Source: Bacteroidota bacterium (GTDB lineage: Bacteria; Bacteroidota; Bacteroidia; JABEUT01). From it: DNA of 64,000 nt. The translations under genes were made by a program, and so were the position numbers. Below the pieces are notes generated by a model. It did not search any database. It worked only from the letters and a program-made list of their open reading frames with translations, and was not told where the DNA came from. Below, piece after piece: positions 1 through 14,900 of this stretch. Where the stretch lies: positions 1 through 64,000 of the forward strand of contig JABDHI010000005.1 of the NCBI GenBank assembly GCA_013285655.1. Reading direction: 5' to 3'. Position 1 is the first letter of the stretch. The number at the start of each line of letters is the position of its first letter.

Positions 1-672
1 AAACAATACCAAAACCGCGGTTTAAGCCTGCAAGACCTTATTAACGAAGGTAATTTGGGCTTATTAAAAGCGGCCAGAAGGTTCGATCCTTCCAAAGGTT
101 TTAAGTTCATATCATATGCCGTGTGGTGGATAAGGCAAACTATTCATCAAGCCCTTGCCGAAGATTCTCGCTTGGTACGCTTGCCTGTTAACAAAATTAA
201 CAGCATGCATAAAATTACCCAGGCCACATCGAGGCTAGAACAGCAATATGGCCGTGAACCTACCGCGGAAGAAGTTGCCGAAATAACCAAAATGACTGAA
301 GCCGACGTTAAAATGTCGATACAGAACTACGCCCGTACCGTTTCAATGGATGCACCATTAGGTGGTGAGGACGATGATGGAAATATGTATGATGTTACCG
401 AAGACAAAGCAGCTGTTAGCCCTGAAAATGAGCTGATGGTAGAATCGCTGAAAACAGAAGTAACCCGTACTTTGTCAACCATACCTCCACGTGAGGCTGA
501 TGTGCTTAAGTTCTACTTTGGTTTAGGAAGCATTCCGCAACCTATGCTGATAGAAGAAATAGCCAGAAGGCTGGATATTTCTCCTGAAAGAGTTAGGCAA
601 ATCAAGGATAAGGCTATACGCAGGTTAAGGCATAATTCAAGAAGCAAAATCTTGAAAACATATCTGGGATAA
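1..672 (+). CDS. RpoD-family sigma-70 factor, 5' end cut by window edge
   Basis: The frame is open from base 1 (KQYQNRGLSLQDLINEGN...), so the gene begins outside the window; the TTG at 55 in the ORF track is not its start. Region 2 is clear (RFDPSKGFKFISYAVWWIRQ) and covers the -10 recognition and melting helices. Region 3 and region 4.2 (ISPERVRQIKDKAIRRLRH) follow, and the protein ends SKILKTYLG like Bacteroidetes primary sigma factors. Region 4 is altered: the usual LTRERVRQIK helix reads ISPERVRQIK, and GSIPQPMLIEEIARR replaces the usual MTLEEIGE. I infer a group 2 (alternative, non-essential) or diverged primary sigma factor. A second paralogue lies at 8403-9266. Confidence 0.93.
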   Translation, partial: KQYQNRGLSLQDLINEGNLGLLKAARRFDPSKGFKFISYAVWWIRQTIHQALAEDSRLVRLPVNKINSMHKITQATSRLEQQYGREPTAEEVAEITKMTEADVKMSIQNYARTVSMDAPLGGEDDDGNMYDVTEDKAAVSPENELMVESLKTEVTRTLSTIPPREADVLKFYFGLGSIPQPMLIEEIARRLDISPERVRQIKDKAIRRLRHNSRSKILKTYLG

Positions 673-1421: not shown

Positions 1422-1479
1422 TAGCTTAAGCTTAACACAACCGCTTTAAAACTTATTTGTGCCGGGGAAACAGTTGGTA

Positions 1480-4400
1480 ATGAAACATAGGATAAAGACA
1501 AAATGCACGCAAGCCATAATAGTATACATTATGGCTTTGTCTTTACTATTCACTACTAAGCTAGTTGCACAAAAAGGTCCGGTTAACGAATCTCAGCTAA
1601 AAAAACAGGCTAATGCTAATTTCGAAGATGAGAACTACGCTAAGGCATACCTTCAATATTCGCAGCTATTAAGCTTATATCCGCAGGACCCTAACTACAA
1701 TTATCGTTTTGGGGCTTGTATGCTCTTCTCGCAATCTGACAAAAAGAAGCCCATTGACTATATTGAAACAGCTGTTAAGCAAACCTCAGTAGACAACCTG
1801 GCTTATTTTTATTTAGGTAGGGCCTATCACCTGAACTATCGCTTTGATGATGCAATAAAAGCATACCAGCATTTTAAACAAAATGCATCTTCATCAGAAT
1901 TAAAGAAACATCCGGTTGACAGATTAATAGAGATGTGTAACAATGGCAAACAATTGCTGGGCAATCTGCATGACCTTGATGTATTGCGAAAGAAAGAGCT
2001 GGACATGAGCGACTATTACCAATCGTATGACCTTAGCTCAAATGGTGGCACTCTATTAGCAGAACCCGATGACTTTAAAACAAAGACTGATAAAAAGAAA
2101 GGGTTAAATTCTATCATTTATTTATCGCCAGATAGGACTCAATTGTTTTTTGCGAGCTACGGTGATGATGATAAGAACGGGAAAGACATTTACATGGCTT
2201 ACCGTTTACCTAACGGAGCATGGGGAAAAGCAAATAACATAGGTCCTGTTATCAACACGCCTTATGATGAAGATTATCCGTTTTACGATGGCCCTACACG
2301 CACATTATACTTTTCATCAACCGGACACAATAGTATGGGCGGGTACGATATTTTCAGATCAACTTACGATGAGGCTACTAAAAGTTGGTCAGCCCCGGTA
2401 AATATGAACTTCCCAATCAACTCTCCCGGAGATGATATTCTCTTTATAGCCGATACTATGAATGAGACAGCGTTCTTTTCATCAACCCGTACGGCACCTG
2501 ATGGAAGAGTCGGCGTTTATAAAATTGCTATTCAGCCACACGCACCCGATTTCTTAGTGGTGAAAGGAACAACATATAATGATGGAGGAACAGCTTTAGC
2601 GGCATCGCGAATTACAGTAAAGAACTTCCAGACCAATGAAGTAATTGGCATATTTAATACCACTGCCGACAATGGCAACTATGTTATGAACCTGGCCAAT
2701 GGCGGGCATTTTATTTATACGGTAGAAACACCAAATCACAAAACACAATCAGAAGCAGTTACGCTGCCAATGCAGGAGGAGCTAACGCCGTTTGTACAAC
2801 AGATCTGCTACGAACCTAATACCGACAGGTTAATTATCAGGAACAATAATCAAGGTAGCGTAAGCGATTCGAACTACCTGATGGCTATGGAGCTCATACA
2901 AAAGAATTCCTCGTTAGATGTGAATATTGATACCACAGTACAACATAAGTTTAAACCTGCAACATTAAACAATCCAACAACTACACCAGATACTGCCTCT
3001 CACCAAACAAACAATCCGGTTGCTGTAACAAACCCTACTCCTACTAACGTAACACCACCCGATACTACATCTACTGAACCCGATTCAACCGACATTGCAA
3101 TTGATACTACCGGCAAAAAAGGTGTAAGTTCTAATCAAATTGAGCAAATAGCCGCCAATGATGCCAAACAAAAACAAGCTGATGCTCAAACTGAAAAAGA
3201 AGAAGCAAACAGAGATATTGAATATGCAACTAACAAGCTAATTGAGGCACAACAACTAACTAAGCTCGCAAACCAAACAGCAGCTACAGCCGATAACATT
3301 ACCGACCCCAAACAAAAAAGCGATACGTTGGCCCGTGCTAACCAGTTAAAACAACAGGCCGATGATGCCAACAAAAAAGCGGTAGAAGGCTTCCAACTTG
3401 CATCGCAACAACAAATTGAGGCAACGGTAAAACAAAAGGAAGCAGACCATGCTACGCAATACGCTACCAACTTAAGTTCTGCATTAAAGTCGGCTGATAA
3501 AGAAAAGGAAATTAAAAGGCTGCAAGCACAACGTGATAGCTTAGAACACCAGGATGAGGCGAACCCGCCAACCACACCAACTGCGGGAGACCTTATACGT
3601 ATGCAGGCGCAAAATGCGAAACAAGATTCTGTTGAGGTTGTGAAACATAATGCCGACCTCCAAAAAGAAGCGGACCGCCTTCAGCAAGAATCTGATGACT
3701 ATGTAACACAAGCACAAAAGACTGACAATGCAAATGAAAAACTAGCATTGCTTGCGCAAGCACGCGATTTAACCAATAGTAAAAAAGAAAAAGAGAACGA
3801 GATACAAGACAACCAAAAATCATTGGTTCAATTACACGATCAATACAATAATTTGCTTACAGAAGCAAACCAAATTGATAGCGCTACCAAAAGCAACCCG
3901 CAAAGCCAACAGCTTAGCAGCACTGATGTTACAAACATTAAAACAGATATAAGGAATTATACTCCAACAAATAATAATCCGGTAATTGCAGCTACCGATA
4001 CCAGTCACCATGTTCAGCCGGTTAATGCAGTTGTAAATAACCCAACACCAATTAACCCAATTATAAAAGACACAACACATGCTGCACAAACGAATCCGGT
4101 TGTAGTAAATAATCCTCAACCTAATCCTGTACAGAACAATCCGGATACAAACCACGCACAAGCAAGTAACCCGGTGGTTGTAAATAATCCAACCTCGACT
4201 AAACCTACTCCGGCAGATACAACTCATAATAGCCAACCGGTTAATCCTGTGGTGATAAATACACCACAACCTAACCCTGCTGTTACTTACTCTACTCCAC
4301 AGGCTTCACGAACAACAAACAATGCTATTCAATTCAGTAAAGAAGCAAATGATTTAAGCTTATTGGCAAATAGCGCTCGCACAGAAGCTAAACAAGCTAC

Positions 4401-6975
4401 CGACCCAGAACAAGCTAAGGCTTTAAATCGCAAAGCTGACTCGCTTGACGATGCAGCACAAGAGCAACGGATTGTTTCATCATTGTTCCTTGATAATGCT
4501 GATAGTGCTCAATACCGCGCCAATCAATTGCAATTAACAGCATGGCAGGCATCTGTTCAAAATAACAATTCTGATTCAGTTGTTAAGGCACAATCGTTGT
4601 TATTAGATGCGAAAGGATACCATGACCAGGCTGTGAAAGAAAGACAGGAAGCCGACAACACTACTTCGCCTACACAAAAGCAACTGCATTTAGATAATGC
4701 TCGCCAGGCGATGGAAACTGCTATAACGAAACAACAACAAGCTCACGATATCTTCTTACAAGCAAACCCATCACTTAATACAGTAGCCTCTGCATCAGAT
4801 ACTTCACATCATGCAACTAACCCTGTTGTTGTAAATAATCCGCAACCTACTGTTGTGCAAGGCAACCCGGATACTACGCATGCACAACCAAACAATCCGG
4901 TTGTTGTAAATAATCCACAGCCTAATCCAGTTCAAACCAATCCTGATACTACTCACGCACAATCAAACAATCCAATTGCTGTAAATAATCCGCAGCCCAA
5001 CCCGGTTCAAAACAACCCTACACAGGTTAAAGATACCACCCACGCTGCACAACCAAATAACCCCGTTGTAGTAAATAATCCTCAACCTAACTCCGTTCAT
5101 AATAACCCTACACCAATAGTTAAAGACACGGGTAATTCGTCACAACCGAACAACCCTGTGGTTGCTAGCAATCCACGGCCTAACCCTGTGCAAAACAATC
5201 CTAATACTACTAGCCCTCAACCAATTAACGGCGGTGTAAATAATCAAACTAATCCTGTTGCAGTAAATAACCCTACACCTGTAAACAGTACGCCTGTAAA
5301 CACAACAAACCGAGACCTAACTGAAAATAAAGGATTGGTCAACTTCCCGCAACAGTATAAGCACAATCAAATAGAAGATATTACGGAAGCTCAAACTTCT
5401 CCTTATTCAGAAACACACCCAATACCTATTAACCCTCCATTGCCTGAAGGTTTGGTGTACAAGGTTCAGATAGGCGCATTTAAGAAACCTATACCGCAAG
5501 CAGCATTTAAGGGCCTTCAACCTATTGCCGGGGAAACTACCACTAAAGGATTTACCCGTTACACGGCAGGTATATTCAAAGAGCTGGATAAGGCCAATAA
5601 TGCCAAAAACAGGGTGCATAAAATTGGTTACCGAGATGCTTTTGTAGTAGCTTTCTACAATGGCAAGCGTATTTCGCTTAAACAAGCCGAAGCATTGCAA
5701 AATGGCGGAACATTACCTGCTGACGTAACTCAACCGGTAGCAGTAAACAATGGTGGCAACCCTACTACAAATAATACCAATACTCCTCAGAACAATACCA
5801 CGGCTAACAGGATACAACAAAACGGTGGTACAGCAAATTCAATAGCAGTTAATGATGTGAAAGGCTTATTCTTTACCGTACAGGTAGGTGCATTTAAAAC
5901 CGAGGTAACGGCTGATAAACTTTATAACCTGAGCCCATTATTCTCGAAAAGCGGAACAAATGGAAACATTCGCTACAACTGCGGTATGTATAGCGATGTG
6001 GCAAAAGCCACTTCAGCTAAAGAATCTATTGTAAGTAAAACTCGTATAAAAGATGCCTTTGTTACGGCTTATTATAATGGCGAGCGCATATCATTGGCAA
6101 AAGCAGCAGAATTATTAGGTAATAAAAATGCATCATTACCAAAGAGTAATGACCTGGACAGGACACCTAGTGCAGACAACAATAATACTCCGGCTCCTAC
6201 ACCCGCCGTACCAACACCTGCGCCTCCAACTCCGGTTGCCGACAAGAGTATTTTTGATACAACGGCCTTTCCCGAAGGAAATATTTATGCGGTAGTACTT
6301 GCTGATATTCATGGCGACCTGACTGGCGATGATGAAACCAAAGTGCTTAGCGTGGCTATACAGCATGGGGTAAGTATACATACCAGCAAAACAGGGCGTA
6401 AGATCTATACAACCGGAAAGTGCACCTCTTATAAAACAGCCGATTCATTAAAAGCTACCATATTGGCCACCATACCTAATGCCGCGGTGTTAGAATTTGT
6501 AAATAACCAGCCGATGGAGTATAGCGGGGGGAACGGTTTACCTGCACCAAAAACAAACAAAAACAGTGGTAATAAAGGAGCAGTTAGAGCCCCTGAGAAT
6601 AATACGCAACCTGTAAACAACCCGCCTCCGGTACAAAGCACCTCGGCCCCTGTTACAAATACAAGCAATGAACCTAGCGCTGCGGACATTAAAACAGGTA
6701 AGGTTGTATTTTGTGTGCAGGTAGGCGCCTATTCTGGTCAAATACCCGTAAATGTGGCTAACAATCTTATTAAAATAGCCAATCAGGGCTTAACCCCACA
6801 TGACGAGGGAAATAATGTGACTGCATATACTATGGGTAGCTATACAAATTATCCATCGGCTAAACTGCTTAAAGATGAGATAACACAGGCCGGTTTCCCT
6901 GGTTGTTTTGTGGTGGCTTACCATAATGGCAAGAAAATTTCATTGCAGGAAGCACAATCGCTGATAAATAAATAA
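1480..6975 (+). CDS. Giant envelope protein: TPR, PD40 propeller, regulatory-like domain, coiled coils, Asn/Pro repeats, SPOR modules (PorE-like layout)
   Basis: I prefer the ATG at 1480 over the tracked GTG at 1459 because it gives a normal signal peptide (basic MKHRIKTK, hydrophobic core, LVAQ). Residue numbers follow the tracked 1838-aa ORF. TPR-like helices span about 45-165. PD40/WD40-like beta-propeller repeats (YLSPDRTQLFFASY, TLYFSSTGHNSMGGYDIF) span about 215-355. A carboxypeptidase-regulatory-like beta domain follows at about 365-440. Ala/Gln/Lys-rich coiled coils lie at about 555-800 and 955-1107, alternating with Asn/Pro repeats (NNPVVVNNPQPNPVQ). Three clear SPOR modules begin VYKVQIGAFK (about 1331), FFTVQVGAFK (about 1470) and VFCVQVGAYS (about 1750), with a degenerate one near 1610. 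SPOR domains bind glycan-strand peptidoglycan. TPR-PD40-CRD is the layout of the T9SS-associated PorE, which ends in OmpA instead. A periplasmic peptidoglycan-anchored scaffold is inferred. Confidence 0.85.
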   Translation: MKHRIKTKCTQAIIVYIMALSLLFTTKLVAQKGPVNESQLKKQANANFEDENYAKAYLQYSQLLSLYPQDPNYNYRFGACMLFSQSDKKKPIDYIETAVKQTSVDNLAYFYLGRAYHLNYRFDDAIKAYQHFKQNASSSELKKHPVDRLIEMCNNGKQLLGNLHDLDVLRKKELDMSDYYQSYDLSSNGGTLLAEPDDFKTKTDKKKGLNSIIYLSPDRTQLFFASYGDDDKNGKDIYMAYRLPNGAWGKANNIGPVINTPYDEDYPFYDGPTRTLYFSSTGHNSMGGYDIFRSTYDEATKSWSAPVNMNFPINSPGDDILFIADTMNETAFFSSTRTAPDGRVGVYKIAIQPHAPDFLVVKGTTYNDGGTALAASRITVKNFQTNEVIGIFNTTADNGNYVMNLANGGHFIYTVETPNHKTQSEAVTLPMQEELTPFVQQICYEPNTDRLIIRNNNQGSVSDSNYLMAMELIQKNSSLDVNIDTTVQHKFKPATLNNPTTTPDTASHQTNNPVAVTNPTPTNVTPPDTTSTEPDSTDIAIDTTGKKGVSSNQIEQIAANDAKQKQADAQTEKEEANRDIEYATNKLIEAQQLTKLANQTAATADNITDPKQKSDTLARANQLKQQADDANKKAVEGFQLASQQQIEATVKQKEADHATQYATNLSSALKSADKEKEIKRLQAQRDSLEHQDEANPPTTPTAGDLIRMQAQNAKQDSVEVVKHNADLQKEADRLQQESDDYVTQAQKTDNANEKLALLAQARDLTNSKKEKENEIQDNQKSLVQLHDQYNNLLTEANQIDSATKSNPQSQQLSSTDVTNIKTDIRNYTPTNNNPVIAATDTSHHVQPVNAVVNNPTPINPIIKDTTHAAQTNPVVVNNPQPNPVQNNPDTNHAQASNPVVVNNPTSTKPTPADTTHNSQPVNPVVINTPQPNPAVTYSTPQASRTTNNAIQFSKEANDLSLLANSARTEAKQATDPEQAKALNRKADSLDDAAQEQRIVSSLFLDNADSAQYRANQLQLTAWQASVQNNNSDSVVKAQSLLLDAKGYHDQAVKERQEADNTTSPTQKQLHLDNARQAMETAITKQQQAHDIFLQANPSLNTVASASDTSHHATNPVVVNNPQPTVVQGNPDTTHAQPNNPVVVNNPQPNPVQTNPDTTHAQSNNPIAVNNPQPNPVQNNPTQVKDTTHAAQPNNPVVVNNPQPNSVHNNPTPIVKDTGNSSQPNNPVVASNPRPNPVQNNPNTTSPQPINGGVNNQTNPVAVNNPTPVNSTPVNTTNRDLTENKGLVNFPQQYKHNQIEDITEAQTSPYSETHPIPINPPLPEGLVYKVQIGAFKKPIPQAAFKGLQPIAGETTTKGFTRYTAGIFKELDKANNAKNRVHKIGYRDAFVVAFYNGKRISLKQAEALQNGGTLPADVTQPVAVNNGGNPTTNNTNTPQNNTTANRIQQNGGTANSIAVNDVKGLFFTVQVGAFKTEVTADKLYNLSPLFSKSGTNGNIRYNCGMYSDVAKATSAKESIVSKTRIKDAFVTAYYNGERISLAKAAELLGNKNASLPKSNDLDRTPSADNNNTPAPTPAVPTPAPPTPVADKSIFDTTAFPEGNIYAVVLADIHGDLTGDDETKVLSVAIQHGVSIHTSKTGRKIYTTGKCTSYKTADSLKATILATIPNAAVLEFVNNQPMEYSGGNGLPAPKTNKNSGNKGAVRAPENNTQPVNNPPPVQSTSAPVTNTSNEPSAADIKTGKVVFCVQVGAYSGQIPVNVANNLIKIANQGLTPHDEGNNVTAYTMGSYTNYPSAKLLKDEITQAGFPGCFVVAYHNGKKISLQEAQSLINK
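3960..5330 (+). repeat. Asn/Pro-rich protein repeats within the SPOR protein gene
   Basis: Two blocks (about 3960-4310 and 4800-5330) repeat units close to NNPVVVNNPQPNPVQ followed by DTTHAQ. At DNA level the copies share motifs such as gtaaataatcc(t/g)caacctaa but differ at synonymous sites, so they are diverged rather than freshly copied. They probably form a flexible extended linker between the coiled coils and the SPOR modules. Confidence 0.75.
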
Positions 6976-6994
6976 GCACAACACTACAAATTAT

Positions 6995-7002
6995 TATATT
7001 TG
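6995..7002 (+). promoter_or_regulatory. -7 box (TATATTTG) for clpS
   Basis: A perfect TAnnTTTG box lies 17 bases before the clpS ATG. The -33 element is not clear. The very short leader agrees with other promoters in the window. Confidence 0.5.
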
Positions 7003-7018
7003 CACCCCAATTTTAGAC

Positions 7019-7300
7019 ATGAGCTTTACAGAAACAGAAGAAATAGTATTAGAAAGAACGCTTAAAAGCAATCAGCATGCGCTAATTGTGTATAACGACG
7101 ACTTCAATACTTTTGACCATGTGATTGAAACGCTCAAGGATTTATGCGGGCACACTACCGAACAGGCTGAGCAATGCACTTTGTTGATCCACTATAAAGG
7201 AAAGTGCGATGTAAAGCGCGGAAGTGTAAAACAACTTAAGCCCATTTTTGAAGGCTTATGCGAAAGGGGATTAAGTGCGGGTATAGAACAATTGGTATAG
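7019..7300 (+). CDS. clpS: ATP-dependent Clp protease adaptor ClpS
   Basis: ClpS binds the N-terminal domain of ClpA/ClpC and delivers N-degron substrates. The 93-aa length fits. The core is recognisable: ALIVYNDDFNTFDHVIETL (the family's NDD-T-fdfVi motif, residues about 22-40), then a helix with the TTEQAEQ element and the strand-helix containing HYKGKCDVKRG in place of the usual H-x-x-G-x-A-v-v. The substrate-pocket Asn-Asp-Asp residues are kept. It lies 43 bases downstream of the SPOR protein gene with its own -7 box. Confidence 0.9.
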   Translation: MSFTETEEIVLERTLKSNQHALIVYNDDFNTFDHVIETLKDLCGHTTEQAEQCTLLIHYKGKCDVKRGSVKQLKPIFEGLCERGLSAGIEQLV

Positions 7301-7318
7301 GTAGTATTAGATAATGAT

Positions 7319-7392
7319 GGTTCCGTAGCTCAATTGGATAGAGCATCTGACTACGGATCAGAAGGTTTGGGGTTCGACTCCCTACGGGACCA
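7319..7392 (+). tRNA. tRNA-Arg (anticodon ACG)
   Basis: A full cloverleaf can be drawn. The acceptor stem is GGTTCCG/CGGGACC, the D arm GCTC-AATTGGATA-GAGC, and the anticodon arm TCTGA-CTACGGA-TCAGA with anticodon ACG. The variable loop is AGGTT, the T arm TGGGG-TTCGACT-CCCTA, and the discriminator base A. The 3' CCA is not fully encoded. Confidence 0.97.
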
Positions 7393-7400
7393 CATGATAG

Positions 7401-7425
7401 ACCCGCAAACATTTAGTTTGCGGGT
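7401..7425 (+). terminator. Hairpin terminator after tRNA-Arg
   Basis: ACCCGCAAAC and GTTTGCGGGT form a perfect 10-bp stem with a 5-base ATTTA loop, nine bases after the tRNA. Only a weak T/A-rich stretch follows, so it may act as a processing or termination hairpin. Confidence 0.7.
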
Positions 7426-7536
7426 TCATTATTTAAACTACAAAAGCCAAATGCCTGCATGAAACTTATATTGAATAACACTATATTTATACTTGTTGTT
7501 TAAGACCAACTCAAAATAACCCGCAATTACACCCCC

Positions 7537-8406
7537 TTGGTATCGCTTAGTATAATTATACCGGCTTATAACGAAGAACATTCTCTTCGTATTTTTTTAC
7601 CACAGGTTATTGATTTTTGCAAACAGCGAGACTATAAGCTAATAGTAGTAAACGATGGCTCGACAGATGGCACAAAAAAAATACTTTCGGAATATTTAAA
7701 CGATCGTAGCACCTTGACAGTTTTACACAATAAGGTAAATAGCGGTTACGGTGCAGCCATAAAAAGAGGCGTACGCGAAGCAACTACCGATTTTATAATA
7801 ACTATTGATGCAGACGGCCAGCATAGTCTGGACGATGTAGACAGGCTTTTTAAAACAGCAATTGATGAAGATGCTGATATGGTTGTGGGTAATCGTGGTG
7901 TCAGTTCTACCTTTTATCGTAACATAGGCAAGTGGTTAATAAGAACCGTCACTAAAATTTTAATGCCACTCGATATACATGATATCAATTCAGGAATGAA
8001 ATTATATAACACTGAATTGGCAAAAAAATACATATCCATTTGCCCGGAAACAATGGCATATAGTGATATTATTCTACTAACGTTCGTTTACCAAAAATGC
8101 AGAGTTATAGAAATTCCAATTACTATTAAACCGCGAACTCAGGGCGTTAGCACTATCAACACCATGACTGCTATAAATACACTTAGGGAATTAGTTAATA
8201 TAGTTGTGCTTTTTAATCCTATTGTAGTCTTCTTTCCACTCGGTATGTTTTGCATTGTTGCATCGGTTATTTGGGGTATACACATAAGCATTGCCGGAAA
8301 AGGTATTAGCACAGGAACGCTTTTAGGAGTACTAACAGGAATTCTAATTTTGTTTATTGGTCTGCTAAGTCATCAAATAAGCGCCTTCCGGAAAGAAAAG
8401 TTTTAG
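7537..8406 (+). CDS. Family 2 glycosyltransferase, polyprenyl-phosphate type (DPM1-like)
   Basis: The GT-A fold starts immediately with SIIIPAYNEE, followed by VVNDGSTDGT (residues about 36-45) and the metal-binding ITIDADGQH (about 89-97). These are typical of enzymes that move a sugar from a nucleotide donor to polyprenyl phosphate on the cytoplasmic face. Two hydrophobic segments at the C-terminus (about 228-250 and 257-277) anchor it in the membrane. An in-frame TAA at 7501 and the lack of any ATG between it and the fold make TTG at 7537 the most likely start. The gene meets the leftward sigma gene tail to tail, sharing four bases. The acceptor sugar cannot be told from sequence. Confidence 0.88.
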   Translation: MVSLSIIIPAYNEEHSLRIFLPQVIDFCKQRDYKLIVVNDGSTDGTKKILSEYLNDRSTLTVLHNKVNSGYGAAIKRGVREATTDFIITIDADGQHSLDDVDRLFKTAIDEDADMVVGNRGVSSTFYRNIGKWLIRTVTKILMPLDIHDINSGMKLYNTELAKKYISICPETMAYSDIILLTFVYQKCRVIEIPITIKPRTQGVSTINTMTAINTLRELVNIVVLFNPIVVFFPLGMFCIVASVIWGIHISIAGKGISTGTLLGVLTGILILFIGLLSHQISAFRKEKF

Positions 8407-9266
8407 CCTAAGTATGTTTTAAGTATCTTACTTCCGGAACTTACCCTGAGTCTTCGTAAAGCCTTATCTTTTATTTGGCGTACACGTTCACGTGTTAGCC
8501 CGTGGCGTTGACCAATTTCCTCTAGGGTAAGTGGGTGTTCCATACCAATGCCATAGAACAATATGATAGTATCGCTTTCGCGCGATGAGAGGCATGAAAG
8601 TATTCTTCTTATTTCCATGCTCAAAGAAGACATCATAAGGTGTCCATCAGGCTGAGGACTTTCTTTATTCTCCAACACATCCATCAGTGTCATCTCTTCA
8701 GTACCACCAAGTGTACTATCGGTAGATATATGCTTAGCCGAAGCGCCCCATGCGGCTTTCACTTCTTCTTCTCTCATCTCAAGTACAGCAGCAATTTCTT
8801 CAAGGCTCGGTTCTCTTTCCAGCATTTGCTCTAGTCTTCCTCCCGCCCTTTTAATTTTACTAACGGCACTCACTTTATTAAGCGGTAGTCGTATCATCCT
8901 AGAATTAACGGCCACGGCCTGAACAATACATTGGCGTATCCACCATACAGCATACGATATGAATTTGAAGCCGCGAGTCTCATCAAATTTTTTAGCCGCT
9001 TTTATAAGCCCCACATTACCTTCGTTAATAAGATCGGATAATGTAAGCCCCTGATTTTGGTATTGTTTGGCAACAGAGACTACAAAGCGTAAGTTCGAAA
9101 CAATAAGTTTTTCCAACGCTTTCTCATCACCTGCATGTATCTTTTGTGCAAGTATCGTTTCCTCTTCCGCCGTAATCATACCTTCGCGGCTAATATCCGC
9201 AAGGTACTTATCGACTGACTGGCTGTCGCGATTGGTTATTAGTTTACTTATCTTGAGTTGCCTCAT
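8403..9266 (-). CDS. RpoD-family sigma-70 factor, second paralogue
   Basis: A full-length 287-aa Bacteroidetes-type sigma factor. The N-terminus MRQLKISKLITNRDSQSVDKYL (region 1.2) is near the family standard. Region 2 (RGFKFISYAVWWIRQ) and region 4.2 (LTRERVRQIKDKALRRLR) are intact, and the end is SKILKTYLG. It departs from typical primary sigma sequences in region 2.4/3.0: QCIVQAVAVNSRMIRLPL where ILQALAEQSRIVRLPL is usual. It also has a changed region 3 (STDSTLGGTEEMTLMDVLEN). It is the last gene of a tight leftward run rhlE - hypothetical - zinc finger - sigma with gaps of 17, 11 and 21 bases. A group 2 stress-related sigma factor is inferred; target promoters are unknown. Confidence 0.92.
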   Translation of the reverse strand: MRQLKISKLITNRDSQSVDKYLADISREGMITAEEETILAQKIHAGDEKALEKLIVSNLRFVVSVAKQYQNQGLTLSDLINEGNVGLIKAAKKFDETRGFKFISYAVWWIRQCIVQAVAVNSRMIRLPLNKVSAVSKIKRAGGRLEQMLEREPSLEEIAAVLEMREEEVKAAWGASAKHISTDSTLGGTEEMTLMDVLENKESPQPDGHLMMSSLSMEIRRILSCLSSRESDTIILFYGIGMEHPLTLEEIGQRHGLTRERVRQIKDKALRRLRVSSGSKILKTYLG

Positions 9267-9287
9267 TCTACTTACAGGGATAAAAGA

Positions 9288-9530
9288 TTATACTTTCTTC
9301 CACTCATGTTTTTTACCATCTCGGCAACCTGCCTGTGCAGGAACTTCAACAGTATTAACTTTCACTCCGCATCCTTCGCAGACGTATTTATTAAGTCCTT
9401 TCTCACCCATAACCATCCAATTGTGGAACGAAGATTTCTTACATCCTCTGATTTTAGGTGTTGTTGTTTTTACCTGCACCTCAAAACAAGCTGTGCAACA
9501 GTAAACACTTAACGATTTAGCTTTATGCAT
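9288..9530 (-). CDS. Small protein with two tandem Cys3His zinc-finger-like repeats
   Basis: I do not recognise a named family. The 80-aa protein consists almost wholly of two 32-residue copies that align without gaps: YCCTACFEVQVK...GCKKSSFHNW and YVCEGCGVKVN...GCRDGKKHEW. Both share Y-x-C-x2-C-x9-P-x3-G-C-x5-H-x-W, which gives three Cys and one His per copy, a plausible zinc site. There is no signal peptide or membrane segment, so it should be cytoplasmic. It sits 11 bases after the 97-aa gene and 21 bases before the sigma gene in the rhlE operon. A nucleic-acid- or protein-binding role is only a guess. ORFs on the opposite strand here lack such a pattern. Confidence 0.75.
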   Translation of the reverse strand: MHKAKSLSVYCCTACFEVQVKTTTPKIRGCKKSSFHNWMVMGEKGLNKYVCEGCGVKVNTVEVPAQAGCRDGKKHEWKKV

Positions 9531-9541
9531 GTTTGGTTAGT

Positions 9542-9835
9542 TTATATGTGTAATGGTAACACGAATTGAATATCTACAACATCTTCGCCGGTCAATATAA
9601 TACTGTGGCTTACATTATGTCTGCCTCTCTTCACGTATTCATCTTTATACGCGTGAAAATTATTCCTTGGTATAAATCTGTATTGGTTTTTCTCTTTTAA
9701 TTCCGAATAATCTTCAAAAGAATTAAAATAGCCATAATGCGCTATATCATCCTTGCAAATTACTCTGGTAACAAAAGACTGGACTGCTGTAGAATAGGTA
9801 TCCTCAATAAGCTTGATCATCTCAGTTTTATCCAT
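9542..9835 (-). CDS. Hypothetical 97-aa protein in rhlE operon
   Basis: No family is recognised. The protein is soluble and acidic-basic mixed, with an N-terminal helix (MDKTEMIKLIEDTYSTAVQSF) and a later beta-rich part (SHSIILTGEDVVDIQFVLPL). It has no signal peptide, Cys pair or membrane segment. It is called because it fits tightly between rhlE (17 bases upstream) and the zinc-finger gene (11 bases downstream) on the same strand, and its composition is protein-like. The start at 9835 is the only in-frame ATG close to the rhlE stop. Confidence 0.6.
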   Translation of the reverse strand: MDKTEMIKLIEDTYSTAVQSFVTRVICKDDIAHYGYFNSFEDYSELKEKNQYRFIPRNNFHAYKDEYVKRGRHNVSHSIILTGEDVVDIQFVLPLHI

Positions 9836-9852
9836 TATATGCTTTTAAAATA

Positions 9853-11007
9853 TTACTTATTCTTAGATGCTGCGGTTCCGTTGTTCCCAAACGGATGGCC
9901 TTTTATTTCTTCAATATTACGATTAAGTAATTTATTAATATCTCGTAAATAAGTTACTTCATCAGGCGAACAAAACGACACAGCTGTGCCTGATGCACCT
10001 GCCCTGCCCGTTCTGCCAATACGGTGAACATAAGTTGCTGCTTCTTCAGGTAGTTCGTAATTTATTACATAATTAAGGCTATCTATATCAATCCCTCTCG
10101 AAGCAATATCGGTAGCGACTAACACACGGGTAGTTTTGTTCTTAAAGCCTTTCAGCGCCCTTTCGCGCGCATTTTGCGATTTATTACCATGTATAGCTTC
10201 CGCCTTAATCTTATTCTTGTTGAGATCTTTTACCACTTTATCGGCACCACGTTTGGTACGGGTAAATACAAGTGCATTCTCAATCATCGCATCTTTTAAT
10301 ATGTGATTAAGCAAAGCCTTTTTGTTTTCCTTATTTACGTAATAAATACCTTGTTGTATTAAAGCTGCGGTAGATTTAACCGGCTCTATATTAATAGAAA
10401 CCGGGTGTTGTAATAATTTATCGGTAAGCTTCCTTATTTCAGGTGAAATTGTAGCTGAAAGGAAAATGGTTTGCTTTTTAGCAGGCAACTGCGTAATGAT
10501 CTTCTTTATATCATTTATAAAGCCCATATCAAGCATTCGGTCAGCCTCATCAAGTACAAAAAACTTGATAGAATTCAGCTTTACATGCCTTTGTTGCATA
10601 AGGTCGAGCAAACGGCCCGGTGTAGCAATAACAACATCAACACCCGTACGCAAACTGTTTACCTGGCCGTGTTGTGAAACTCCACCAAATATCAATGCAT
10701 ATTTAAGGTTCATATTATTACCATAGGCTTTAAAGCTTTCGTGTATTTGCAAGGCCAGTTCCCTTGTAGGTGCCAATACCAATGCTTTTATTCCTTGTGT
10801 CTTGTTTTCGGGTTTGCTTAAAAGCTGCAGTATAGGTAATGCAAAGGCTGCAGTTTTACCTGTACCTGTCTGTGCACAACCCAAAATGTCTTTCCCTTCT
10901 AAAATACAAGGGATAGCTTTTTCTTGTATGGGCGTTGGTTTCGAATAACCTTGCCTAGTTAAGGCGTCGAGCAGAGGCGTAATTAAATTTAAATCTTGAA
11001 ATGTCAT
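9853..11007 (-). CDS. rhlE: DEAD-box ATP-dependent RNA helicase, RhlE type
   Basis: All core motifs are present in order: TPIQEKAIP (Q motif, residues about 24-32), CAQTGTGKTAAF (motif I), PTRELALQ (Ia), TPGRLLDLM (Ib), VLDEADRMLDMGF (II, DEAD), LSATIS (III), LVFTRTKRGADKV (IV), VATDIASRGIDID (V) and YVHRIGRTGRAG (VI). The opening FQDLNLITPLLDAL and the 384-aa length with a short basic tail fit RhlE. Family members unwind structured RNA in ribosome assembly, RNA decay and cold adaptation. It heads a leftward operon ending in a sigma factor. A possible promoter near 11151-11158 would give a leader of roughly 135 bases containing hairpins. Confidence 0.93.
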   Translation of the reverse strand: MTFQDLNLITPLLDALTRQGYSKPTPIQEKAIPCILEGKDILGCAQTGTGKTAAFALPILQLLSKPENKTQGIKALVLAPTRELALQIHESFKAYGNNMNLKYALIFGGVSQHGQVNSLRTGVDVVIATPGRLLDLMQQRHVKLNSIKFFVLDEADRMLDMGFINDIKKIITQLPAKKQTIFLSATISPEIRKLTDKLLQHPVSINIEPVKSTAALIQQGIYYVNKENKKALLNHILKDAMIENALVFTRTKRGADKVVKDLNKNKIKAEAIHGNKSQNARERALKGFKNKTTRVLVATDIASRGIDIDSLNYVINYELPEEAATYVHRIGRTGRAGASGTAVSFCSPDEVTYLRDINKLLNRNIEEIKGHPFGNNGTAASKNK

Positions 11008-11102
11008 ATTATATATATTAAATTAGTAATCAAGGACAACCGAAACGACGGTTTCCCCTTTTTTTACTTAATGTGAAAAGCGTAAGACGATTCTGAATTA
11101 TA

Positions 11103-11117
11103 GGGTGAGAATCACCC
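11103..11117 (-). promoter_or_regulatory. Hairpin in predicted rhlE leader RNA
   Basis: A perfect 6-bp stem with a 3-base loop (GGGTGA-TTC-TCACCC on the minus strand) lies within the predicted 5' leader, between the TATATTTG box at 11151-11158 and the rhlE ATG. It may affect cold-dependent translation or autoregulation, by analogy with other cold-shock helicases; this is inference. Confidence 0.45.
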
Positions 11118-11150
11118 ACAGTTGAAATACAATCTCCAAAAGAAGTATTA

Positions 11151-11158
11151 CAAATATA
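11151..11158 (-). promoter_or_regulatory. -7 box (TATATTTG) for rhlE operon
   Basis: CAAATATA on the plus strand reads TATATTTG on the minus strand, a perfect Bacteroidetes -7 box 144 bases upstream of the rhlE start. The -33 region is weak (CGTG 20 bases upstream). Confidence 0.45.
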
Positions 11159-11401
11159 CTACTTATTTAGCTAAGAAACACGTAAAGCTTAAGTATCTCC
11201 CAATAAAAAACACAAAAGCACTACAGCGGTTGGCTCTGCCCGTCAAAATTTATTTTTTCATATCCCTTAGGGGCCATATTATCAAAACTTACCATACCTC
11301 AAGTTTGAAATTTAAAGCAGTTAAAAATCAACCGGATAACAAAATGAATTTTTAACAAACACAGTATAGCAATTATATAGAATATGGTATAATAATTAGT
11401 T

Positions 11402-11415
11402 TAGTTTATAAACTA
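11402..11415. promoter_or_regulatory. Palindromic operator candidate for MarR regulator
   Basis: TAGTTTATAAACTA is a perfect 14-bp palindrome. It covers the -33-like TTTA (11405-11408) that stands 21 bases before the TACATTTG -7 box (11430-11437) of the marR operon. MarR dimers typically bind such short palindromes in their own promoter. Binding here is inferred from position and symmetry. Confidence 0.6.
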
Positions 11416-11429
11416 TCAACAAATTCAAC

Positions 11430-11437
11430 TACATTTG
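11430..11437 (+). promoter_or_regulatory. -7 box (TACATTTG) for marR-RND operon
   Basis: A perfect TAnnTTTG box lies 24 bases before the marR ATG, with TTTA 21 bases upstream as a possible -33 element inside the palindrome. Confidence 0.55.
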
Positions 11438-11461
11438 TGCCTTCATCTTTTTTAATACCCC

Positions 11462-11923
11462 ATGCCTCAAAAAAAGATATCGATATTCGAAATTGAAAAT
11501 TTTTCATTCGGTAAAAAATTCAGCTTGCTTGGGCGCTTGTATTTAACGGCTTTGTCTAAGGAACTGAAGCATTTGAATATTGAAGGAAATTTTTCCGTTC
11601 TTGTGTTGATCGATAAAATGGGAGATCAGTGCAGCCAGAAATTCTTAGCAGACAAGCTTCATGTTGATAAAACAATGATGGTAGGCGTATTAGATGACTT
11701 GAGTAAGAAAGGTTTTATTAAACGCACTCAAAACCCGTCAGACAGGAGAGAATACTGGATACAACTTACAGCTAAAGGAAAGAAAAGCGTACCTCAAATA
11801 CTGGATGTTGTGGACTGCCTTAATAAATCATTAGTAAAGAATTTGAAGATTGCGGAAGTAAAACAATTCAATAAACACCTTGAGTTAATTTATAAACGCC
11901 TTATAGATATTAATAAGTGTTAA
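11462..11923 (+). CDS. MarR-family transcriptional regulator of the efflux operon
   Basis: The 153-aa length and winged-helix core fit MarR: a helix-turn-helix around SQKFLADKLHVDKTMMVGVLDDLSKKGFI (residues about 58-87), then the wing RTQNPSDRREYWIQLTAKGKK with the family's D-x-R core (SDRREY). The N- and C-terminal helices would form the dimer. The ATG at 11462 fits the promoter. It is the first gene of a run with the RND permease (22-base gap), adaptor and TolC-like genes, so it most likely represses that operon and itself and responds to a small ligand. The ligand is unknown. Confidence 0.9.
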   Translation: MPQKKISIFEIENFSFGKKFSLLGRLYLTALSKELKHLNIEGNFSVLVLIDKMGDQCSQKFLADKLHVDKTMMVGVLDDLSKKGFIKRTQNPSDRREYWIQLTAKGKKSVPQILDVVDCLNKSLVKNLKIAEVKQFNKHLELIYKRLIDINKC

Positions 11924-11945
11924 TGCCAATTAAAAGCAGGAAAAT

Positions 11946-14900
11946 ATGATGTGGATTGTAAGGCTTGCATTACGCAGGCCATACACAATAGCAGTAATGG
12001 CAATGCTTATCCTGATGATGGGTATCCTGTCTATTCGTGCTATGTTGGTAGATATTTTCCCAAATATTGATATTCCTGTTGTCCTTGTTGTATGGAACTA
12101 CCCTGGCCTTTCGGCAGACGATATAGAAAAGCGTGTAGTATTTTTAGATGAACGTGCTATATCAAGTACAGTTAATGGCGTTTCGAAAATAGAATCCTCA
12201 TCAATACCGGGTGTAGGATTACTTAAAGTCTATTTTGAACCAGGCGCCGATATTGGCGCTGCTATTGCGCAAATGACGGCCGTATCTAGCACAGCATTGC
12301 GGGCAATGCCACCGGGTATGACTCCGCCGGTAATTTTACAATACAATGCTACCAACGTTCCCGTTGCTCAAATTACATTAAGCAGTAAAACATTGCCGGA
12401 AGAAAAAATATTCGACTATGGTTTGAATTTTATCCGCTTACGTTTATTTACCATACCCGGGCTTGCTACCCCCGCTCCATTTGGCGGCAAAAACCGCCAG
12501 ATCATGGTTGATATTGATCCGCGAGCATTAGCAGCCAAGGGCCTTTCTCCTAATGATATTCTAACTGCTATCCAGGCATCTAACCTCATTATTCCTGCTG
12601 GTACTGCGCGTATGGGTGAAACGGAGTTTAACGTCGCACTCAATTCGAGCCCTGATAATGTTAAACTATTTGAACAGATACCATTAAAGGTAGTTAACGG
12701 CCAAACTGTTTTATTGGGTGATGTAGCTAAGGTCAGCGATAGTTTTGCTGAGCAAACCAATATAGTACGTGTCGACAGGAGTCGTGCTGCGTATCTTACC
12801 ATTTTAAAGAAGGCGAACGCTTCTACTCTTGTAGTAGTAGAATCGGCAAAAGCCATGCTGCCTCTTATTAAAGAAACTGCTCCACAAGGGCTTGACCTAA
12901 GAGTTGATTTTGACCAATCAGTCTTTGTGCGCAACTCTATCAATAATGTACTTCGAGAAGCTATTATGGCATCCACACTGGTATCTATAATGATACTTTT
13001 CTTTTTGGGTAGCTGGCGCAGTGTTATAATAGTATGTACTTCTATACCGCTTTCCATTTTTGTATCTATTATCGGTATGAACCTGTTGGGCGATACTATT
13101 AACATTATGACATTGGGTGGATTATCACTCGCTGTTGGTATGTTGGTCGATGATGCCACGGTTGAAGTTGAGAACATACATCGTAACCGGCATATGGGCA
13201 AACCATTAACGGTAGCTATATTGGATGGTGCAAGCCAAATTGCAACGCCTGCAATTGTTGCCACATTAGCTATTTGTATCGTGTTCTTCCCTGTAGTATT
13301 GCTTACGGGCCCAGCTAAGTTCTTATTCTCTCCGTTAGCATTGGCGGTAGTTATTGCTATGATGGCTTCCTATCTCCTTTCACGGACATTGGTGCCTACC
13401 CTATCGCGTATGTTAATGGAAGGCGAAGCGTTGCATGAAGACCCTAACAATCCTAACCTTAGCTCCTTCAAAAGAATTGGTGTACGATTTAACCACTGGC
13501 GCGACCGCAACTTTGAACGTTTCCAGAACGGATATGGCAATGTGTTGAATGTATTGTTGACCTATAAAAAAACCACACTTACTTTTGTGTTCATAGCATT
13601 AGCGGCATCGTTCATGCTTTTAGGAATTGTAGGAACAGATTTCTTCCCGAGTACCGATTCAGGGATGATGAAATTGCACTTCCGTTCGCCATCGGGTACA
13701 CGAATTGAAAGCACTGAAAAGCTGGTTGACTCAGCAGAAGCACGCATACAGAACATTATTCCTAAAAATGAATTGGAAACGGTAAACGATATGATAGGCG
13801 TTCCTGTTTCATACAACCTTGCCTTTGTAAATACTGATAATACAAGTGGTATGGACGCTGATATTACAATCTCACTAAAAGAAGGTCACAAACCGACTAT
13901 AGATTATATGCGTAAGATACGGAAGGATCTTAATGACCATTTTCCGGGTTGCACTATCTATTTTCAATCGGCAGATATTGTGAATCAGGTATTGAATTTT
14001 GGCCTCTCTGCACCTATTGACGTACAGATTCAATTTGGCGATTATTACAAATCTTACGAATACGCCCGCAAGCTTCGCGATGAGATGAAAGGAATACCGG
14101 GTGTTGAAGATGTTGCAATAAAACAAGTATTAGATTATCCTACTTTTAAAGTAGATGTTGACCGTGTGCGTGCTGCACAACTTGGCCTAACACAACGCGA
14201 TGTTGCTAACGACATACTTATTTCATTATCATCAAGTTCAATGGTTGGGCCTTCATTCTACATAAACCCGAGCAATAATGTTAATTACCCTGTAGCTATT
14301 CAAACCCCTTATCAAAAGATACATTCTGTTCAGGATTTAATGAATACACCGATAACTTCAGGTACAAGCGCCTTTACGAATAATACAAACCCGTCCCCAT
14401 CTGACTTACCGGAAGCACAATCTCAAACACTCGGCAACCTTGCCAAAATAACCAACACTACGCAGTTCAATTTATTTAGTCACTATACCGTACAGCGTGT
14501 AATGGACATTGACGCTAATGTGGAAGGTAGCGATCTGGGTTCGGTGGCAACTGCAATTCAGAAAAAAATTGATGCGCTGGGCAAACTCCCTCCGGGTATG
14601 CGTATCGACCTGCATGGACAGAGTGAGGTTATGAATTCTTCTTTTAAAACATTGAGCCTTGGCCTTATACTTGCTATTGCATTAGTATATCTTTTAATGG
14701 TTGTGTTGTTCCAATCGTGGATGGACCCTTTTATTATTATGCTTTCTATTCCCGGTGCGTTTATGGGTATATTATGGATGCTGGCATTAACAGGCACCAC
14801 AATAAATGTTGAATCGTTAATGGGTTCGATAGTGGCTATTGGTATTGCCGTATCTAACTCTATATTATTGGTAAGTTTTGCTAATGATCTGCGTGTAGAA

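What the first reader, a model, noticed from the sequence alone, without database searches (positions are those of the whole stretch)
9288..9530. 80-aa protein made of two perfectly aligned copies of a Cys3His finger
The two halves align over 32 residues with no gap and share Y-x-C-x2-C-x9-P-x3-G-C-x5-H-x-W. Each copy has three Cys and one His. I know of no named family with this duplicated pattern. It sits in an operon between an RNA helicase and a sigma factor, suggesting a role with RNA, transcription or protein partners.
Basis: seen in the sequence. Interest (0 to 1): 0.66.

Follow-up and report, generated by a model that had tools for sequence, protein, structure and literature searches.

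The report
Small tandem zinc-ribbon protein, cold-shock neighbours
A real, selectively maintained 80-residue bacterial protein made of two copies of a small zinc-binding module belongs to an unnamed family, sits beside genes typical of the cold-shock response in its own order, and beside candidate phage-defence nucleases elsewhere; its function is untested.

Summary
Window 9530..9288 (-) encodes 80 aa with two ungapped copies of Y-x-C-x2-C-x9-P-x3-G-C-x5-H-x-W. The gene is under strong purifying selection. Homologues occur in about 20 of 395 Bacteroidia genomes sampled, rarely elsewhere in the phylum, and in a 636-kb phage. No Pfam, NCBIfam, PHROG or PDB family fits. AlphaFold2 gives a confident fold (pLDDT 92); Foldseek's weak hits are mostly zinc ribbons. 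The unit also occurs singly, often with a signal peptide. In this order the gene travels with a DEAD-box helicase, an unknown 97-aa protein and a secondary (not primary) sigma-70 factor. Relatives add cold-shock-domain, RRM, S21 and fatty-acid-desaturase genes, which is a cold-shock-like set. Outside the order this context disappears; in three lineages the finger gene directly precedes a known or possible nuclease gene. Most likely it is a basic, cytosolic double zinc-ribbon RNA- or protein-binding adaptor recruited to cold-type RNA metabolism (inferred, about 0.42). Novelty: an unnamed family of a known kind. Interest is moderate.

The parts
9288..9530 (-). CDS of the 80-aa tandem zinc-ribbon protein (start ATG at 9530, stop included)
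   Evidence: homologues; pN/pS; AF2 pLDDT 91.7
9417..9503 (-). repeat 1, residues 10-38; putative ligands C12, C15, C30, H36; carries the TPKIRGCK stretch that is invariant among the seven orthologues of the order
9300..9386 (-). repeat 2, residues 49-77; putative ligands C51, C54, C69, H75
9542..9835 (-). 97-aa protein of unknown function (u97) directly upstream (11-nt gap); found only in this order and mostly linked to the same cluster
9853..11007 (-). DEAD-box RNA helicase, first gene of the run
   Evidence: Pfam DEAD 1.3e-56 and Helicase_C 2.6e-33; orthologues
8403..9266 (-). secondary sigma-70 factor (regions 1.2, 2, 3, 4), a fast-evolving paralogue, 21 nt downstream of the finger gene
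   Evidence: Pfam; paralogue tree

Best explanation
It is a small cytosolic protein made of two zinc ribbons in tandem. Each 36-39-residue unit binds one zinc through C-x2-C-x14-C-x5-H and forms a three-stranded antiparallel sheet; a single long strand (residues 38-51) joins the two units. The unit is an old module of Bacteroidota that exists singly and doubled, cytosolic and secreted. In this order the doubled, cytosolic version has been fixed in a cold-shock-like gene neighbourhood (DEAD-box helicase, secondary sigma-70 factor, cold-shock domain, RRM, S21, fatty-acid desaturases). There it most likely acts as a basic RNA- or ribonucleoprotein-binding adaptor that works with the helicase/RNA-chaperone set when RNA structure has to be resolved. 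Shown: the gene, the repeats, invariance of the ligands, selection, the gene neighbourhood and co-occurrence. Predicted: the fold. Inferred: zinc, RNA binding, and the cold role.
For: All eight putative ligands are invariant in 18 homologues and the six key residues of the unit in 32 single repeats. AF2: whole protein pLDDT 91.7/pTM 0.78, strands 8-12, 18-21, 38-51, 57-60, 77-79; one unit alone pLDDT 92.5 with three strands. Foldseek hits, though weak, are mostly zinc ribbons or rubredoxin-like knuckles (MCM, rubrerythrin, Rpb12-type, release-factor ribbon). Strongly basic: 12-15 K+R versus 4-8 D+E in 80 residues in all seven orthologues. Repeat 1 is better conserved than repeat 2 (71% v 52% mean pairwise identity) with an invariant TPKIRGCK stretch, save one K-to-S at its last position in G008's next residue. 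Neighbourhood: helicase, u97, sigma, CSD, RRM, S21 and two different desaturases across the order. Of the 11 genomes of the order, the seven with this finger gene carry helicase (6), sigma paralogue (6) and u97 (5); the four without it carry none of the three, including one 99% complete. CSPs, DEAD-box helicases and a fatty-acid desaturase are cold-induced together in Caulobacter (PMC8552747).
Against: No RNA-binding or expression data. Neighbourhood is guilt by association, and the four genes are physically linked, so their co-occurrence is not independent evidence. Three of the four negative genomes are only 57-61% complete. Order and orientation are not fixed (divergent in G002/G005). In the window itself no CSD, RRM, S21 or desaturase gene was found. 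Outside the order the same protein type has quite other neighbours, and some are secreted, so the module as such is not an RNA-binding signature. The model was predicted without metal.
Confidence: 0.42

Rival explanations
1. A partner or regulator of the neighbouring secondary sigma factor or of RNA polymerase, in the way small zinc proteins such as Fin, TraR or DksA bind sigma or polymerase.
For: Sigma paralogue directly downstream in the window and in G010 and G003; sigma paralogue and finger gene co-occur in six of seven genomes.
Against: No match above the cut-off to Fin or TraR models. In G002 and G005 sigma lies about 3 kb away, in G004 on another contig, and G008 has the finger gene but no such sigma found (86% complete). 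The distant homologues looked at show no sigma factor beside the gene.
Confidence: 0.2
2. A generic zinc-ribbon adaptor or sensor that partners nucleases and defence systems; the cold-shock-like setting is one lineage's reuse. The finger would present nucleic acid or a trigger to the nuclease.
For: In G272 it ends 1 nt before a PDDEXK_4 nuclease scoring as PDC-S26, with genes that look like DNA methylases further on; in G145 it is 61 nt before a GmrSD/HEC-06 protein; in G151 2 nt before a protein that to the eye looks nuclease-like. Carried by a huge phage.
Against: Three lineages only; the G151 neighbour matches no Pfam or PADLOC model; several other lineages have unrelated neighbours; defence islands gather unrelated cargo; the phage and G126/G212 forms carry an apparent signal peptide.
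Confidence: 0.2
3. A metal buffer, metallochaperone or redox-switch protein with no nucleic-acid role.
For: Family-wide, only the ligands, P, G and W are invariant; secreted single-unit forms exist.
Against: No metal-transport or metal-regulator gene recognised in the neighbourhoods read; the invariant TPKIRGC stretch in the order points to a specific surface.
Confidence: 0.13
4. A spurious ORF or chance pattern.
For: None after the tests.
Against: Purifying selection and family-wide invariance.
Confidence: 0.01

Closest known systems
Zinc-ribbon fold class (MCM N-terminal ribbon, rubredoxin domain of rubrerythrin, Rpb12-type ribbon)
   Same: Zinc knuckle C-x2-C on a beta hairpin, second ligand pair further on, three-stranded sheet; these are most of the Foldseek hits
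   Different: Foldseek E-values above 2.5 and TM at best about 0.6 over about 40 residues; second ligand pair is C-x5-H with an invariant following W; doubled in tandem
FmdB / Zn_ribbon_8 (PF09723, TIGR02605)
   Same: C-x2-C-G knuckle; the best sequence hit of distant homologues (30.1 bits)
   Different: Below both curated cut-offs (34.4, 31.3); the family's second C-x2-C is replaced by C-x5-H; the window protein itself has no hit
Eukaryotic-type CCCH finger (C-x7-8-C-x5-C-x3-H)
   Same: Three Cys and one His per unit, often in tandem, weak hit 12.9 bits to PF25512
   Different: Spacing C-x2-C-x14-C-x5-H and a predicted beta-sheet fold; far below the cut-off of 27
Small bacterial zinc proteins acting on sigma/RNA polymerase (Fin, TraR/DksA)
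   Same: Size, C-x2-C knuckle, sigma factor next door
   Different: No match above cut-off (TraR 12.9 v 108 bits; Fin 18.5 v 23.7 in a distant homologue only)

Membership tests
Zinc ribbon (fold class) | Two zinc knuckles contributing four Cys/His ligands | tested here: met
   C12 C15 C30 H36 and C51 C54 C69 H75 invariant in 18 homologues
Zinc ribbon (fold class) | Three-stranded antiparallel sheet with the ligands at its end | tested here: inconclusive
   Three strands per unit predicted with pLDDT 92.5 and ribbon-type Foldseek hits, but none significant; coordinates could not be inspected
Zinc ribbon (fold class) | Binds zinc | not testable with these tools
   needs metal analysis of purified protein
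FmdB / Zn_ribbon_8 | C-x2-C ... C-x2-C, score above curated cut-off | tested here: not met
Eukaryotic-type CCCH finger | C-x7-8-C-x5-C-x3-H spacing | tested here: not met
   spacing C-x2-C-x14-C-x5-H; PF25512 12.9 v 27 bits
TraR/DksA or Fin | score above curated cut-off | tested here: not met
Known anti-phage defence component | match to a PADLOC model | tested here: not met
   no hit for the window protein or a distant homologue
Cold-shock gene set (functional class) | genomic linkage to CSD, DEAD helicase, RRM, desaturase genes | tested here: met
   within the order only
Cold-shock gene set (functional class) | induction on temperature downshift | not testable with these tools
   no expression data held

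The most novel reading that the evidence does not exclude
A previously unnamed family of tandem zinc-ribbon adaptors that plugs into different nucleic-acid machines by lineage: with a secondary sigma factor and DEAD-box helicase in a dedicated cold-adaptation cluster in one Bacteroidia order, and with PD-(D/E)XK or GmrSD nucleases as part of defence operons elsewhere.
Probability: 0.15. Interest if true: 0.6.

Novelty: new variant of a known kind. Interest (0 to 1): 0.4.

Why it matters
Small zinc proteins of bacteria are poorly covered by family libraries. This one gives a precise, searchable signature (Y-x-C-x2-C-x9-P-x3-[GN]-C-x5-H-x-W, doubled) for which Pfam, NCBIfam, PHROGs and PADLOC hold no model. 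In one order it marks a compact cluster with a secondary sigma-70 factor and cold-shock-type RNA genes. Post-transcriptional control in Bacteroidota is only now being opened up (RbpB, PMC11697453), so an additional RNA-linked protein would be useful if confirmed.

Tried and rejected
Pfam, NCBIfam, PHROGs, PADLOC and PDB sequence searches: no family. The PDB profile hits to GET3 are chance (E above 0.3). Plasmid tblastn with two homologues: none. Viral contigs: one locus, the same phage protein. Class of G477 sampled with 245 genomes: only G477 itself. Idea that the adjacent sigma is the primary one: rejected, three sigma clades, with the primary one the only one in the near-complete G006. Idea that N- and C-repeats form two clean clades from one old duplication: not resolved on 29 columns; repeats within one protein are 24-34% identical in the window type and its nearest relatives, 45-72% elsewhere. 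Rfam in 7000-12000: only a tRNA. Promoter scan no better than shuffles. Literature searches found no description of this motif in the library held.

Full report
What is in the sequence. The ORF at 9530..9288 (-) is as described: 80 aa, MHKAKSLSVYCCTACFEVQVKTTTPKIRGCKKSSFHNWMVMGEKGLNKYVCEGCGVKVNTVEVPAQAGCRDGKKHEWKKV. Residues 10-38 and 49-77 align without a gap and share Y-x-C-x2-C-x9-P-x3-G-C-x5-H-x-W; L7/L46 extends this to 32 residues. Shuffle tests put the self-similarity at 1/3000, or 12/3000 when Cys and His are kept in place. That alone would be modest evidence. The comparative evidence is decisive.

The family is real. tblastn and profile searches find homologues in most genomes of the window's order (9 of 11) and patchily in other Bacteroidia: 22 of 395 sampled genomes with the two-repeat profile and 21 of 395 with the single-unit profile, a few of these hits being weak or partial. 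One genome of another class of the phylum has it, and so does a 636-kb uncultured phage, LR756504, with an identical copy in an IMG/VR contig. In 18 aligned homologues the eight Cys/His, both P and both W are invariant, as are two linker glycines. Nucleotide changes between orthologues concentrate at third positions (pN 0.09 to 0.29, pS 0.64 to 0.93 over ten pairs).

The unit. The same 36-residue unit occurs alone, in three proteins of G188 with an apparent N-terminal signal or lipoprotein peptide and in one of G231. It also occurs doubled in proteins with an apparent signal peptide (the phage and G126, G212). In G477, of another class, the secreted version breaks at contig ends, as an array of near-identical repeats would. 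Within-protein repeat identity is 28% in the window protein but up to 72% in others, so the window copy is a diverged duplicate.

Fold. AlphaFold2 gives pLDDT 91.7 and pTM 0.78 for the whole protein from 17 sequences and pLDDT 92.5 for one unit. Each unit has a hairpin at the C-x2-C knuckle and a third strand; a single long strand, residues 38-51, runs from the first unit into the second. Foldseek finds nothing significant, but its list is mostly zinc ribbons and rubredoxin-like knuckles. I therefore call it a tandem zinc ribbon with C-x2-C-x14-C-x5-H ligands. Zinc itself is inferred.

Neighbourhood in the order. On the minus strand the order is helicase, u97, finger protein, sigma, with gaps of 17, 11 and 21 nt. 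In G010 the run continues with cold-shock-domain, RRM and S21 genes. G003 has finger, sigma, CSD, RRM. G008 has helicase, u97, a fatty-acid desaturase, finger, RRM. G002 and G005 have helicase, CSD, u97, another desaturase and sigma, with the finger gene divergent upstream (families). The seven genomes of the order with this finger type carry the helicase (6), the sigma paralogue (6) and u97 (5); the four without it carry none, and one of these four is 99% complete. The sigma factor is not the housekeeping one. Three sigma clades exist in the order; the one that is the only sigma of this kind in the 99%-complete G006 is the 'p' clade, whose copy lies at window 1-672, while the neighbour of the finger gene is a faster-evolving paralogue. 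CSPs, DEAD-box helicases and a fatty-acid desaturase are jointly cold-induced in Caulobacter (PMC8552747), and an RRM protein is a global RNA binder in Bacteroides (PMC11697453). Hence the cold-shock-like reading, which is inference.

Elsewhere. Outside the order the neighbours differ. In G272 the finger gene ends 1 nt before a PDDEXK_4 nuclease that scores as PADLOC PDC-S26, with genes that look like DNA methylases further on. In G145 it is 61 nt before a GmrSD protein scoring as HEC-06. In G151 it is 2 nt before a protein that to the eye looks nuclease-like but has no Pfam or PADLOC hit. Others have no such neighbour. This keeps a second reading open: a portable zinc-ribbon adaptor used by different nucleic-acid systems.

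Verdict. The function most likely is an RNA or RNP adaptor in a cold-type cluster (0.42), with sigma/polymerase binding (0.2) and nuclease adaptor (0.2) as the main rivals.

Noticed in passing
window 8403-9266 (-) and 1-672 (+): Two RpoD-like sigma-70 factors within 9 kb; three sigma clades exist in the order, and the one next to the finger gene is fast-evolving and absent from the 99%-complete G006.
   Followed up: partly
window 9542-9835 (-): 97-aa protein (u97) with no family, found only in this order among 100 genomes; its four close relatives lie in the same cluster, and G002 has one further weak partial match.
   Followed up: partly
L069 6014-7262; L062 4240-6235; L063 6067-7627: Finger gene directly upstream of PDDEXK_4/PDC-S26, GmrSD/HEC-06 and a possible nuclease gene in three different Bacteroidia families: a possible defence link.
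   Followed up: partly
L072 5929-6216 and L076 5001-5285: A huge uncultured phage (LR756504.1, 636 kb) encodes a double-finger protein with an apparent signal peptide.
   Followed up: partly
L066 about 5612-5850 (G006): A second-type finger gene is split over two reading frames: a frameshift in the genome or the assembly.
   Followed up: no
L045, L049, L051 (G188): Three single-unit proteins with apparent signal or lipoprotein peptides in one genome: the unit also seems to function outside the cytosol.
   Followed up: no
window 1459-6975 (+): 1838-aa protein with long Asn/Pro/Thr-rich repeats (NNPQPNPV type) and C-terminal stretches that look like SPOR-type repeats; not analysed.
   Followed up: no
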